The notes under the pieces: generated by a model | Told to the model about the DNA's origin: nothing | Database searches by the model: none | Seen by the model: the letters and a program-made list of their open reading frames with translations, nothing else | Made by a program: the position numbers and the translations under genes | Shown here: positions 38,545-43,614 of the stretch, in pieces | Position numbering within the stretch: the first letter of the stretch is position 1 | How the letters are laid out: each line of letters begins with the position of its first letter | DNA from: Thermoanaerobaculia bacterium | GTDB taxonomy: Bacteria > Acidobacteriota > Thermoanaerobaculia > UBA5066 | Assembly: GCA_022071945.1 (NCBI GenBank) | Contig: JAJVIN010000041.1 | Location: 1 to 64,000 of the forward strand | Reading direction: 5' to 3' | Length of the DNA: 64,000 bases

Positions 38545-40040
38545 CGCGCCGGTAGCTCCTGCGCCGCAAGGCCCGCGAGAAGGCGGGCCGTCACCTCGCG
38601 GTCGTCGAACGGAAGGTGGTCGTCTCCGATGATCTGGTACGTCTCGTGTCCCTTGCCGGCGATCAGGACGATGTCTCCCGGGCGCGACCTCCTGAGAGCC
38701 TCGGCTATCGCCTCTTCACGGTCCGCGATGGTCGTCGCCGCCTTCCCCGTGCTCTCATAGCCTTCCCGGATCTGGGCGAGGATCGCCAAGGGGTCCTCGG
38801 AGCGCGGGTTGTCGGATGTCAGGATGGTCTCGTCGGCCAGAAGCGCCGCGATCCGGCCCATGAGGGGACGTTTTCCGCGGTCGCGCTCTCCCCCGCAGCC
38901 GAACACCGCGATGACGCGCGCCGGGCCGTGCCCCGCCAGATCGCGAACCGTGCGGAGGACGCCCTCCAGGGCGCCGGGCTTGTGGGCGTAGTCGACGAAC
39001 ACCCTGCGGCCGCTGTCGTTGAGGATCTCTTCCAGGCGCCCGGGCACCTTGTCGACCGATGCCAGAGCCTCGCCGATTTCCTCCGGGGCGATTCCGAGGG
39101 AAAGACCGGTTGCCGCCGCGGCCAGGAGGTTCTGGGCATTCGGAGCCCCCGTGAGCCTGGAGACGAACTCGACGGCGCGGCCAGTGGCGCGGTCCGCGAT
39201 CCCCATCCTGAGACCGGCCCTCTCGTGCCGGTACGCCCCGAAGATGCGGGCGTAGGACTCGTTCTCGAACGTGAAGCCCCAGGTACGGCCAGGGAACCTG
39301 GCGAGGATCTCCTGGCCGTGAGGGTCGTCGGCGTTCACGACTCCGGTGCCGTCCGCCTTCAGCATCGAAAAGAGCCTCGCCTTGGCCTCGAAGTAGGCCT
39401 CCATCGTGCCGTGGAAGTCGAGGTGGTCGCGGCTGAGGTTGAGATAGACGGCCGAGTCGAATTCGCAGCCCGTCAGCCGGTCGAGCATCAAGGCGTGCGA
39501 GGAGCATTCGAGGACCGCGGCCGTTCCCCCGCCGGACACGAGATCTCCCAGCATGTTCTGGAGATCCGTCGCCTCGGGAGTGGTCCGTGCCGCCTCGATC
39601 TGCCGGCGGGCCCCCCGGTAGACGAGGGTGCCGAAGAGCCCCACGAGCCTGTTCGTGCGGGCGAGGATCCGCTCGATGAGAAGCGTGGTGGTGGTCTTAC
39701 CGCTCGTTCCCGTCACGCCCACCATCAAGAGCCTCGCGGCGGGGTTCCCGGCCAGCGCGGCCGCGCAGAGGGCGGCGGACTCGCGAGGGCGGCTCGTCGA
39801 CACGTACGGCACCGGAAGATCCTCTGGAGCCGGCGGCCGTCCGAGACAGGCTGCGGCGCCCCGGCTCACGGCGTCCGGGAGGAAGGTCCGGCCATCCGCG
39901 GCCTGGCCCGGAAAGGCACAGAACAGCGCTCCCGGTCCGGCTCGCCTCGAGTCGTGAGTGACGGAAGAGATGACGGGATCCGCGCCGGCCGGCGTGATCG
40001 AAGCTCCGTCGATTTGACGGGTCAGTTCCGAAAGCCTCAT
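38541..40040 (-). CDS. murE: UDP-MurNAc-tripeptide synthetase (meso-DAP type)
   Basis: The 499-residue Mur ligase has VTHDSRRAGPGALFCAFPG, ATP loop GTSGKTTTTLL, and the amino-acid selectivity motif DNPRSEDP. The DNPR form indicates addition of meso-diaminopimelate rather than lysine. The start ATG overlaps the ftsI stop by four bases. Confidence 0.96.
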   Translation of the reverse strand: MRLSELTRQIDGASITPAGADPVISSVTHDSRRAGPGALFCAFPGQAADGRTFLPDAVSRGAAACLGRPPAPEDLPVPYVSTSRPRESAALCAAALAGNPAARLLMVGVTGTSGKTTTTLLIERILARTNRLVGLFGTLVYRGARRQIEAARTTPEATDLQNMLGDLVSGGGTAAVLECSSHALMLDRLTGCEFDSAVYLNLSRDHLDFHGTMEAYFEAKARLFSMLKADGTGVVNADDPHGQEILARFPGRTWGFTFENESYARIFGAYRHERAGLRMGIADRATGRAVEFVSRLTGAPNAQNLLAAAATGLSLGIAPEEIGEALASVDKVPGRLEEILNDSGRRVFVDYAHKPGALEGVLRTVRDLAGHGPARVIAVFGCGGERDRGKRPLMGRIAALLADETILTSDNPRSEDPLAILAQIREGYESTGKAATTIADREEAIAEALRRSRPGDIVLIAGKGHETYQIIGDDHLPFDDREVTARLLAGLAAQELPAR

Positions 40041-42109
40041 CGGTTCTGTGCCTCCGGCGCGAAGGCAGGAGCCGCGGGCTCCTCGTCAGGCGGGTTCAGA
40101 GAAAGGGTCAAGCGTGCCCACGTGCCCGGCTCGATGGCGGCCCCCGGCGGGGGTTCCTGGGCCACGACGAAACCGCTCCCCTCCAGGCGGACGCGGACAC
40201 CCAGGAGGGCTAGAGTCCGGGTGGCATCGCGGGCGCTTTGCCCCGAGAGGTCCGGAAATCCGTCACCCGACAGGCCGTGAGAAGGACGCCGGAAGCGGGT
40301 CGATGCGGGGACGAGATCGGAGGTCAGGATGGGCGAGAGGACGGGAGCCGAGCGGGACAGCTCGGCCACGAGGGTGGTGGGCGTGGTTCTCGATTCGTCC
40401 GGATGAGGCGCCTCGTGAAGGAGCTGCATGACCTGCGAGGCCACGGCGGAGAAGACGGGAGCCGCGACGTCACCTCCGTACTGCTTTCCCTTCGGCTCGT
40501 CCACCTCGACGGCGATCACGACCCGTGGAGTATCCGCCGGAACGAAGCCGATGAACGAGGCGACGAACCGGTCGCGGGAATAGCCTCCGCCAGGCACAGC
40601 CTTCTGGGCGGTCCCCGTCTTTCCGGCCACCGTGAAGCCCGGAACGGCCGCCCGCTTTCCCGTTCCCTTGGAGACGACGAGTTGCAACAGGCGCCTGAGG
40701 GTTTCCGCCGTCTTCTCCGAGAGAACTCGCTCGGCGGCCGGGCGCCGCATCTTCTCGACCCGGCCATCCGGATAACGGACCTCGGAAATGAGATGAGGGC
40801 CGACGAGCATGCCCCCGTTCGCGATGGCCGAGTACCCCCGGGCCATCTGCAAGAGAGTCACGCCGATCTCCTGCCCGAACGACATGGTCGGCAGCGTCAG
40901 GGCACTCCAGGAACGGACATCACGCAGGAGCCCCGCGGTCTCGCCCTCGATCTCGATCCCGGTCTTTTTCCCGAAGCCCAGATTTCGGAGGACCTTGAAG
41001 AACCCGGTCCTGCCGACGCTCATTCCGATCCGGGCGCTCCCGATGTTGGAGGAGAAGGCGAGGACGTCCCCCACCGGGAGGGCGCCGTAGCGGCTCCGTC
41101 CGTGCTCATGGATGGTCGTCGATCCGATCGTGAGAGCCCCGCCCCCGCAGTCGATGACGTCGCCTTCCTCGATGACGCCGGTTTCCAGCCCCGCGGCGAC
41201 CGTGAAGGCCTTGAAGGTGGACCCAGGCTCGTAGACGTCCGCTATGGCGCGGCACTTGCGGAACTCCGGGTCGAACTCCCCGTACCGGTTCGGATCGAAG
41301 ACCGGGGCGGAGGCCAGGGCCAGGATCTCGCCCGAGTACGGGTCCATCACGACCACGGACCCCGCGCGCGCCCGGTAGGTCTGAAAGGCCTCCATCAGTT
41401 CCTTTTCGGCGATGTGCTGGATCGAGGCATCGAGGGTGAGGGACAGGGCGGCCCCCTCGACGGCTCCCCCGTCGCGCTCCAGGCGCAGGGGCCTCCCCGG
41501 GGCCGCGTAGTAGCGCTGGGCGGCATCGCGCAGCACGGTCACGCGGGCCGGACGGCCACGAATCGCCCGGTCGAACCGGAACTCGATCCCCGACAGACCC
41601 TGGTTGTCCAGGCCGACGTAGCCCAGGACCGACGAGGCGAGTTCCGACTGCGGGTACCGGCGGATCGATTCCTTGATGAGCCTGACGCCCTTCAGCTTCC
41701 GAGCCGACACCCTGTCCGCGAGGTCCTCTTGCACTCTCCTCGCGATCCAGACGAAGTCCCGCTCCCTATCCGAGAGCTTTCTGAGGACTTCGGCATGAGG
41801 GACGCCGAGGATGTCGGAGAGAACCTTCGCCGTCGGTTCCGGTCCATCCATCTCCGAGGGAATGGCAAAGACGGAATCGACGCTGGCCGTGATCGCCAGG
41901 GGCTCGCCCGTCCGGTCCAGGATCGCGCCTCGCCGGGGCGGCAGCTCGATCGTCCGCTCCTGCTGGCGCTTCGCCTTGACGGCGAATTCCTCGCTGCGAT
42001 GAAGCTGCAGATCGGCCAGGCGCGCGATCAGGATGATGATCCAGACACACCCGGCCCCGAGCAGGATCCAGATCCGCTTCGCCGCCGGATTCGAGCCGGG
42101 ATCGGACAC
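40037..42109 (-). CDS. ftsI: Septal transpeptidase (class B PBP) with a C-terminal PASTA domain
   Basis: The 690-residue protein cross-links septal peptidoglycan. It has one membrane anchor (about 13-31), a PBP dimerisation region (45-215) and a transpeptidase domain (245-570) with S297-TFK, S353-SN355 and K497TGT. After a linker, a single PASTA-like domain (about 615-672) is present; PASTA tails are usual in Gram-positive or SpoVD-type PBPs and in some other phyla. GTG 42109 is chosen because it comes one base after the ftsL stop. The frame is open back to 42289, but that extension is the out-of-frame reading of the ftsL repeat (RPPGH repeats). Confidence 0.95.
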   Translation of the reverse strand: MSDPGSNPAAKRIWILLGAGCVWIIILIARLADLQLHRSEEFAVKAKRQQERTIELPPRRGAILDRTGEPLAITASVDSVFAIPSEMDGPEPTAKVLSDILGVPHAEVLRKLSDRERDFVWIARRVQEDLADRVSARKLKGVRLIKESIRRYPQSELASSVLGYVGLDNQGLSGIEFRFDRAIRGRPARVTVLRDAAQRYYAAPGRPLRLERDGGAVEGAALSLTLDASIQHIAEKELMEAFQTYRARAGSVVVMDPYSGEILALASAPVFDPNRYGEFDPEFRKCRAIADVYEPGSTFKAFTVAAGLETGVIEEGDVIDCGGGALTIGSTTIHEHGRSRYGALPVGDVLAFSSNIGSARIGMSVGRTGFFKVLRNLGFGKKTGIEIEGETAGLLRDVRSWSALTLPTMSFGQEIGVTLLQMARGYSAIANGGMLVGPHLISEVRYPDGRVEKMRRPAAERVLSEKTAETLRRLLQLVVSKGTGKRAAVPGFTVAGKTGTAQKAVPGGGYSRDRFVASFIGFVPADTPRVVIAVEVDEPKGKQYGGDVAAPVFSAVASQVMQLLHEAPHPDESRTTPTTLVAELSRSAPVLSPILTSDLVPASTRFRRPSHGLSGDGFPDLSGQSARDATRTLALLGVRVRLEGSGFVVAQEPPPGAAIEPGTWARLTLSLNPPDEEPAAPAFAPEAQNR

Positions 42110-42110
42110 C

Positions 42111-42650
42111 TCAGAACCCCTCTTCGGTCGACGCCGTCGCGGGGACGGCGGCCGGTGACCCGGCGGCCGGTGACCCGGTGGCCGGTGACCCGGCGGCCGG
42201 TGACCCGGTGGCCGGTGACCCGGCGGCCGGTGACCCGGTGGCCGGAACCCCGGCGGAAGGGGAAACGCCGGCGGGTTCTTGATCCACACGCGGAAGGGGT
42301 GCCGGGACCGGCTGCAGAGCCTTTCCCTGAACCAGAATGATCTGGTCGGGCCGGGCCGGGCCGAGCCCGAGGCTTGCGCGGGCGATGAGCTCCGTCCGCG
42401 CGAGCGAGGCCGCGTTGGCCCTCTCCACTTCCAGCTGCCGCCTCTTCTCGAGCAGCACCTCGCGCTGCTTCTCGAGACGTCCCAGCTGGTACCCGATCTG
42501 GATCGTCTCCAGATTCGCCCGCATCGCCCAGAAGAGAACGCACAGGGGCGGGATCAGCGCCACCGAGAATGCCAGGAGTTCCCTCGCCTTCTTCCGGTCC
42601 CGCTCCCTGATCAGGTAAGGGTTCTCGACGGGCTTCTTGACGGCGTACAC
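42111..42650 (-). CDS. ftsL: FtsL-like divisome protein with repetitive C-terminal tail
   Basis: The 179-residue protein occupies the ftsL position and has its architecture: a short cytoplasmic N-terminus, one span (about 25-44, ELLAFSVALIPPLCVLFWAM) and a coiled coil (about 47-90, QLGRLEKQREVLLEKRRQLEVE). A segment typical of this family (ARASLGLGPARPDQII) follows. Ordinary FtsL proteins are 90-120 residues. The extra about 60 residues form a proline/alanine/glycine tail (PATGSPAAGS repeated) encoded by the tandem repeat at 42151-42255. The assignment as FtsL rests on position and topology, since primary sequence conservation is weak in this family. Confidence 0.85.
   Translation of the reverse strand: MYAVKKPVENPYLIRERDRKKARELLAFSVALIPPLCVLFWAMRANLETIQIGYQLGRLEKQREVLLEKRRQLEVERANAASLARTELIARASLGLGPARPDQIILVQGKALQPVPAPLPRVDQEPAGVSPSAGVPATGSPAAGSPATGSPAAGSPATGSPAAGSPAAVPATASTEEGF
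42151..42255. repeat. 15/30-base tandem repeat (minisatellite) inside ftsL
   Basis: Six perfect 15-base units, alternating GCCGGTGACCCGGCG and GCCGGTGACCCGGTG, give three 30-base periods (42151-42240), followed by one degenerate unit (42241-42255). The period is a multiple of three, so copy-number change keeps the ftsL frame and the overlapping ftsI-frame extension open. Confidence 0.97.
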
Positions 42651-42666: not shown

Positions 42667-43614
42667 TCACCCTTCCCCGGTTCGCTCGATTGCCCTCAGA
42701 CGGGCCGAGCGGGAACGGGGGTTCTTGGAGACCTCCTCGTCCGAAGGACGAATCGGCTGCCGCGTGACGAGCGCCATCACGCGCTTGCGTGCGCAGACAC
42801 AGGCGGGGAACGAGGGCGGACACGTGCAGACCGCGGTGTGCCTGGCAAAGGTCCGCTTGACGATCCGGTCCTCGAGGGAGTGATAGGAAAGGACGGTCAG
42901 CCGCGAGCCGAGGGAGAGCCTCTCGATGGCGTCGTCGAGGAACCGGGTGAGACCCGTCAATTCCTGGTTCGTCGCGATCCGAAGGGCCTGGAAGACCCTC
43001 GTGGCGGGGTCGATCTTCCCCGGACGGCGGGGAACCGCTGCGTGGACGAGGCTCCTCAGCCCGTCCGTCGTGTCGATGGGGGCTCCCTTGCGTTTCTCCA
43101 CGATCAATCGAGCGATCTTTCCTGCCATGGGCTCCTCTCCGTATTCCCAGAAGATCCTTTCGAGTTCGTCCCGGTCTTCATCCCGCACGAGGTCCGAAGC
43201 CGACCTCCCCGCCCGGCTCATCCGCATGTCGAGCGGGCCCGGCCGCATGAAAGAAAAGCCGCGCTCCGCCCGGTCGAGCTGCATCGAGGAGACCCCGAGG
43301 TCCGCCAGGACCCCGTCGACTCGCGCAACCCCGAGCCCGTCCAGGATCTCCGCGAGATCCTCGTGACGCCCCGCCACGAGCGAGACCCTGCTCCCGAACC
43401 TCGCCAGCCGCTCTCCCGCCAGGGCGAGGGCGTCGGGGTCCCGGTCGATCCCCACGAGACGGACTTCCGCCCCGGAGTCGAGAAGAGCCTCCGCATGCCC
43501 TCCCAGACCGAGCGTCGCGTCGACGAAGATCCCGCCCCTGCCGGGCTGGAGCAGCTCGAGCACCTCGGGGAGAAGGACGGGGACGTGGCCGGAGGCATCG
43601 CTCTTCTCCTCCAC
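42667..43614 (-). CDS. rsmH: 16S rRNA m4C1402 methyltransferase
   Basis: The 315-residue SAM-dependent enzyme N4-methylates C1402 of 16S rRNA. Signatures: HVPVLLPEVLELL, the SAM loop FVDATLGLGGHAEALLD, LADLGVSSMQLD, RGFSFMRPGPLDMRM, and the C-terminal VLSYHSLEDRIVKRTF. The GTG start abuts the mraZ stop with no gap. Position directly after mraZ is canonical. Confidence 0.97.
   Translation of the reverse strand: MEEKSDASGHVPVLLPEVLELLQPGRGGIFVDATLGLGGHAEALLDSGAEVRLVGIDRDPDALALAGERLARFGSRVSLVAGRHEDLAEILDGLGVARVDGVLADLGVSSMQLDRAERGFSFMRPGPLDMRMSRAGRSASDLVRDEDRDELERIFWEYGEEPMAGKIARLIVEKRKGAPIDTTDGLRSLVHAAVPRRPGKIDPATRVFQALRIATNQELTGLTRFLDDAIERLSLGSRLTVLSYHSLEDRIVKRTFARHTAVCTCPPSFPACVCARKRVMALVTRQPIRPSDEEVSKNPRSRSARLRAIERTGEG

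What the first reader, a model, noticed from the sequence alone, without database searches (positions are those of the whole stretch)
42151..42255. In-frame 30-base minisatellite in ftsL, open in two frames
Three perfect 30-base periods encode PATGSPAAGS repeats in the FtsL tail, adding about 60 residues to a normally short divisome protein. The same DNA is also open in the ftsI frame, where it would read RPPGH repeats upstream of the GTG start. Because the period is a multiple of three, slippage would change tail length without breaking ftsL, offering a way to tune the distance between the coiled coil and the periplasmic partners. Perfect identity of the units suggests recent expansion.
Basis: partly seen in the sequence, partly recalled or inferred. 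Interest (0 to 1): 0.62.

Follow-up and report, generated by a model that had tools for sequence, protein, structure and literature searches.

The report
Recently expanded repeat in FtsL's tail
A cell-division protein of an uncultured acidobacterium has gained a short stretch of repeated amino acids in a floppy end piece that relatives vary freely or lack; this looks like ordinary repeat expansion in a tolerant spot, not a new control device.

Summary
The repeat is real: on the minus strand, a 15-base unit repeated 7.4 times (42146-42256). One alternating A/G site makes it exactly periodic at 30 bases over 42150-42245, and it encodes (PATGSPAAGS)x3 in ftsL. The gene sits between rsmH and ftsI; its relatives are Thermoanaerobaculia (Acidobacteriota).

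The repeat lies after the segment matching FtsL's last strand (window V107, next to E. coli V118 by alignment), so it lengthens a free C-terminal tail. It is not a spacer between the coiled coil and its partners. In 107 FtsL proteins of the class the tail runs 4-72 residues (median 13); the window's is the longest. Of 57 tails of at least 36 bases, 7 hold tandem repeats beyond shuffling, of periods 7, 12, 15 and 21. The unit occurs nowhere else in this genome and in none of 59 relatives.

The open ftsI frame is a by-product. ftsI most likely starts at GTG 42109, behind a Shine-Dalgarno sequence inside ftsL's last codons.

Best explanation: slippage or unequal recombination expanded a weakly constrained, disordered Pro/Ala-rich tail. 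Length tuning is unsupported but not excluded, because strain variation could not be tested. Interest is low.

The parts
42146..42256 (-). 15-base tandem array, 7.4 copies; exact 30-base period over 42150-42245
42114..42329 (-). variable Pro/Ala-rich C-terminal tail of FtsL (72 residues, after V107 of DQIILV)
   Evidence: tail defined against a 30-sequence alignment and a 107-position core model; AlphaFold2 block means of pLDDT about 52-65 over residues 101-179, no helix or strand
42111..42650 (-). ftsL, 179 aa, GTG start, TGA stop
   Evidence: ORF; weak Pfam FtsL hit below cut-off; profile aligns to E. coli FtsL 8hhf_L; between rsmH and ftsI
42117..42125 (-). Shine-Dalgarno-like GAAGAGGGG for ftsI, inside the ftsL codons for EEG of TEEGF
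   Evidence: anti-SD duplex -7.7 kcal/mol
40037..42109 (-). ftsI (PBP dimerisation, transpeptidase, PASTA domains) from the likely GTG start at 42109
42667..43614 (-). rsmH (mraW), upstream neighbour of ftsL
   Evidence: Pfam Methyltransf_5, E 2.2e-105

Best explanation
The array is a lineage-specific minisatellite that grew by replication slippage or unequal recombination in the C-terminal tail of FtsL. The likely order is inferred: a 15-base duplication, one A/G change in a copy, then copying of the resulting 30-base dimer. It could grow here because the segment between FtsL's last strand and the ftsI ribosome-binding site is disordered, dispensable in much of the class and constrained mainly in composition (rich in Pro/Ala, poor in Lys/Arg). 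The conserved end TEEGF mainly reflects the ftsI Shine-Dalgarno sequence. Shown: position, uniqueness, tail variability, independent repeats in other tails. Inferred: the expansion mechanism and its near-neutrality.
For: Array and reading. Core 1-107 aligned with E. coli FtsL 8hhf_L (profile 42-106 to chain 46-117, E 0.017); the last FtsL strand in E. coli is E115-V118 (PMC10076392, passages seen). Tail 4-72 aa, median 13, in 107 of 107 loci examined; 49 of 94 loci outside the family have tails of 8 residues or fewer. Of 57 tails of at least 36 nt, 7 have repeats reached by at most 2 of 200 shuffles (periods 15, 12, 7, 7, 7, 7, 21); same-length windows of the 57 cores score at most 13, against 70 for the window's tail. 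Unit found only here in its own genome and in 0 of 59 relatives. Tail amino acids differ about five times as often as core ones (0.30 against 0.06 over 142 pairs of 21 loci). ftsL 3' ends match anti-SD: median -8.6 against -3.7 kcal/mol for 962 core windows; 77% against 21% at -6 or lower, n = 105. A second 15/30-base in-frame array sits in an unrelated ORF of the same genome. AlphaFold2 tail unstructured.
Against: All 13 family loci keep a tail of at least 20 residues. Family tails are richer in Pro/Ala than any of 200 nucleotide shuffles (0.434 against a maximum of 0.39) and poorer in Arg/Lys (0.076 against a minimum of 0.129), so the tail is translated and some composition is kept; it is not wholly free. 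Of the 7 repeat-bearing tails, L022 scores only 11, and L158 with a score of 12 missed the threshold (3 of 200 shuffles). The genome is an assembly of unseen reads, so copy number may be off.
Confidence: 0.82

Rival explanations
1. The repeat number is a slippage-driven dial: the tail reaches towards peptidoglycan or divisome partners, and its length is tuned by gain and loss of 15- or 30-base units without breaking ftsL.
For: Unit length a multiple of three; all 13 family loci keep a Pro/Ala-rich tail of 20-72 residues with biased composition.
Against: Tail is distal to the last strand; many class members have 4-8 residues; tail sequence not conserved and unstructured; other tails carry period-7 repeats.
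Confidence: 0.08
2. The second open frame is real: FtsI is made with an N-terminal RPPGH-repeat extension from the GTG at 42289, overlapping ftsL.
For: The frame is open for 443 nt upstream of the ftsL stop and has a GTG at 42289.
Against: Anti-SD energy -2.2 at 42289 against -7.7 at 42109; ftsI frames open for 34-1408 nt upstream of the ftsL stop are seen in all 30 loci; 12 of 12 family relatives have ftsI in the other frame relative to ftsL, with no similar upstream reading.
Confidence: 0.02
3. The array, or its exact length, is an assembly artefact (false expansion or collapse).
For: Draft assembly of 69 contigs; tandem repeats are a known source of assembly error (PMC6868369, abstract seen). 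Reads were not available.
Against: The array is about 111 bases, which ordinary reads can span (general knowledge); ftsL stays open through it and its flanks; copies carry an ordered A/G alternation; a similar array exists elsewhere in the genome.
Confidence: 0.05
4. The array acts in the RNA, as a structure that couples or tunes translation of ftsI just downstream.
For: It lies immediately upstream of the ftsI ribosome-binding site, and the unit contains CCGG...CCGG inverted repeats.
Against: Folding is no better than shuffled sequence (z -0.78; 39 of 200 shuffles fold as well); family relatives lack it and most keep a strong SD without it.
Confidence: 0.03

Closest known systems
In-frame minisatellites / low-complexity regions in disordered parts of bacterial proteins
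   Same: Short unit that is a multiple of three, head-to-tail copies, disordered Pro/Ala/Gly/Ser-rich product, lineage-specific; the same genome has another such array in a different ORF.
   Different: It lies in a divisome protein; searches for 'FtsL' with 'tandem repeat' and 'divisome' (0 papers) and 'FtsL' with 'tandem repeats' (3 papers, listing only, none about FtsL repeats by title or abstract start) found no earlier report in the held library.
FtsL of the FtsQLB complex (E. coli, PDB 8hhf)
   Same: N-terminal segment, one membrane helix continuing into a coiled coil, then a short helix and a segment aligned with the last strand; gene between rsmH and ftsI.
   Different: E. coli FtsL (121 residues in 8hhf_L) ends just after its last strand (E115-V118); here 72 further residues follow.
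Phase-variable simple-sequence contingency loci (recalled, no call)
   Same: Tandem repeats inside a coding sequence that may slip.
   Different: Units are multiples of three, so no on/off switching; no strain variation shown.

Membership tests
FtsL | Position in the division and cell wall cluster between rsmH and ftsI | tested here: met
   Pfam Methyltransf_5 upstream; PBP_dimer and Transpeptidase downstream
FtsL | Sequence match to the FtsL family | tested here: inconclusive
   Only Pfam hit is FtsL, but E 0.2 and 12.1 bits against a 22.9 cut-off; profile of 30 relatives matches E. coli FtsL chain with E 0.017, while FtsB chains score slightly better
FtsL | One membrane helix continuing into a coiled coil | tested here: met
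   AlphaFold2 helices 19-80 and 83-94, block means of pLDDT 93-98 over residues 21-80; membrane span judged by inspection only
FtsL | Complex with FtsB and FtsQ, essential for division | not testable with these tools
   needs experiment
Minisatellite | Head-to-tail units of roughly 10-100 bases | tested here: met
   15-base unit, 7.4 copies
Minisatellite | Copy-number variation between individuals or strains | not testable with these tools
   one genome per species held; own genus g1 has only this genome in the class search
Overlapping coding frames (ftsL tail and extended FtsI) | Second frame conserved and with its own start signal | tested here: not met
   weak SD at the upstream start; no similar reading in relatives

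The most novel reading that the evidence does not exclude
In this family of Thermoanaerobaculia the Pro/Ala-rich FtsL tail is a functional, length-tunable tether at the membrane-distal end of FtsQLB (for example contacting peptidoglycan), and in-frame repeats are its source of heritable length variation.
Probability: 0.06. Interest if true: 0.5.

Novelty: new member of a known kind. Interest (0 to 1): 0.2.

Why it matters
It shows where FtsL tolerates change: beyond its last strand the protein can gain or lose dozens of residues, and repeats have arisen there several times in one class. It also warns that GC-rich repeats open several frames at once, so a second open frame through such an array is no evidence of a second gene. 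The by-product, that ftsL's last codons double as the ftsI ribosome-binding site, explains an apparently conserved C-terminal protein motif without a protein function.

Tried and rejected
Distance tuning between coiled coil and partners: rejected as stated because the array lies after the last strand. N-terminally extended FtsI: rejected on start signals and lack of conservation. RNA structure controlling ftsI: no excess folding. Mobile or dispersed repeat: unit is unique in the genome and absent from 59 relatives; no plasmid match. Protein-level role for the conserved C-terminal TEEGF: 8 of 12 family relatives end in TEEGF or TAEGF while the 4 members of genus g3 (L007, L010, L012, L014) do not but keep purine-rich stretches there; anti-SD energies support a ribosome-binding role. 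L007 (-3.3), L010 (-5.9) and L014 (-5.6) are weak and do not fit this well.

Limits. Of 148 genomes in the class search 138 had a match; I analysed one locus each from 107 of them (the window and the 29 relatives that got loci, 5 further loci, 72 fetched), leaving out 31 with weaker or doubtful matches, including G013 of the same family. Two of the 107 had too little ftsI sequence for the SD count (n = 105); the automatic ftsI frame is probably wrong for a few (for example L030, L136, L144, L164, L168, L170, L171), which does not affect the anti-SD energies, measured at the ftsL stop. The genome sample for background repeats was 464 kb of 6.17 Mb (window plus 20 stretches of 20 kb, 19 of them contig starts, which may be richer in repeats). 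One search read minus-strand loci in the wrong orientation and was replaced; nothing is cited from it. Searches on heptanucleotide repeats and on CTG starts gave listings only and no paper was used. From PMC7733951, PMC10076392 and PMC7614612 I saw passages only; from PMC6821194 and PMC6868369 the abstract and outline; nothing rests on PMC7733951, PMC7614612 or PMC6821194.

Full report
What is there. On the minus strand at 42146-42256 lies a 15-base tandem array of 7.4 copies, the highest-scoring of five arrays in the window. Units alternate between CCGGCCACCGGGTCA and CCGGCCGCCGGGTCA, so the array is exactly periodic at 30 bases over 42150-42245. In the ftsL frame it reads PATGSPAAGS three times (residues 136-165) and then runs out in PAA. 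None of 200 dinucleotide shuffles of the tail reaches its repeat score.

Where it is. The gene is 179 codons plus stop (42111-42650) between rsmH and a penicillin-binding protein with dimerisation, transpeptidase and PASTA domains, i.e. ftsI. Pfam gives only FtsL, below its cut-off. A profile of 30 relatives aligns with E. coli FtsL 8hhf_L, positions 42-106 to residues 46-117 (E 0.017), although FtsB chains score slightly better; both are coiled-coil partners of one complex. In the E. coli complex the last FtsL element is strand E115-V118, joined to FtsB and FtsQ (PMC10076392, passages). Window V107, the end of DQIILV, falls at that place. The 72 residues after it are a free tail: AlphaFold2 gives block means of pLDDT of about 52-65 from residue 101 on and no helix or strand. 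A longer or shorter array therefore should not change the distance between the coiled coil and FtsQ or FtsB (inference from position).

Relatives. Named relatives are metagenome assemblies of Acidobacteriota, many titled Thermoanaerobaculia. Among 107 loci, one per genome, the tail runs from 4 to 72 residues with a median of 13; the window's is the longest. In the window's own family (13 loci) tails are 20-72 residues; in 49 of 94 loci outside it they are 8 residues or fewer. The 12 family relatives with a found ftsL lack this repeat, and the unit is absent from 59 relatives' genomes and found nowhere else in the own genome. Seven of the 57 tails of at least 36 nt have tandem repeats that at most 2 of 200 shuffles reach: the window (15), L010 (12), L030, L019, L048, L024 (all 7) and L022 (21). 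Same-length windows of the 57 cores score at most 13, against 70 for the window's tail. Period 7 is not a multiple of three, so frame-preserving units are not the rule. Tail residues differ about five times as often as core residues within one genus-level set (0.30 against 0.06, 142 pairs of 21 loci).

Is the tail free of constraint? Not wholly. Family tails read in the ftsL frame have 43% Pro+Ala and 7.6% Arg+Lys, outside the range of 200 nucleotide shuffles (maximum 39% and minimum 12.9%); the two other frames have 38% and 24% Arg+Lys. The tail is thus translated in the ftsL frame and kept Pro/Ala-rich and poor in positive charge, as for an exposed periplasmic tail (inference).

The ftsI junction. 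All 107 ftsL genes end in TGA; outside the family 84 of 94 are ATGA or GTGA, the classic overlapping start. The last ftsL codons match the anti-Shine-Dalgarno sequence: median -8.6 against -3.7 kcal/mol in 962 core windows, and 77% against 21% at -6 or lower (n = 105). The family's C-terminal TEEGF is the reading of sequences such as ACGGAGGAGGGGTTC, i.e. that site. In the window ftsI starts at GTG 42109, one base after the stop (-7.7 kcal/mol); the start upstream of the repeat at 42289 has -2.2. In 12 of 12 family relatives ftsI lies in the other frame relative to ftsL, so the RPPGH reading is private to the window and a by-product of a stop-free GC-rich unit.

Background. In 464 kb of the own genome four sites have arrays of score 150 or more, all inside ORFs. 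One (L190:9734-9888) has the same 15/30 build with one alternating residue (LEASS/LEGSS), just after an apparent signal peptide (by eye) of an 827-aa ORF, and is also open in other frames. Such arrays seem to be a general habit of this genome, as far as the sample goes. RNA folding of the ftsL array is no better than shuffled (z -0.78).

Judgement. The most economical account is near-neutral expansion in a permissive, disordered, composition-biased tail squeezed between FtsL's last strand and the ftsI ribosome-binding site. Whether copy number varies in nature was not testable here.

Noticed in passing
L008, L009, L011-L017 (ftsL stop, offset -1): In 9 of 12 family relatives the only plausible ftsI start is a CTG overlapping the ftsL stop (CTGA), behind an SD-like stretch (anti-SD -5.6 to -12.6 kcal/mol); other in-frame ATG/GTG/TTG nearby are absent or lie further in with weaker sites. 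A conserved CTG start for an essential gene would be unusual.
   Followed up: partly
ftsL/ftsI junction, 107 loci: The ftsL stop is TGA in 107 of 107 loci, mostly as ATGA or GTGA overlapping the ftsI start; the window is an exception, with GTG one base downstream in another frame.
   Followed up: yes
L030 (G037), ftsL end: A 7-base repeat (AGAAGGC)n in the ftsL tail is followed, just after the stop, by inverted copies, a potential hairpin before ftsI.
   Followed up: no
L190:9734-9888 (own genome, contig C9): An exact 30-base, 5.2-copy array (LEASSLEGSS) lies right after an apparent signal peptide of an 827-aa ORF, with the same 15/30 dimer build as the ftsL array.
   Followed up: partly
L196:17516-17612 and L199:4084-4163 (own genome): Two arrays of 14-base units, 6.9 and 5.7 copies, one inside an ORF and one with no ORF spanning it.
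   Followed up: no
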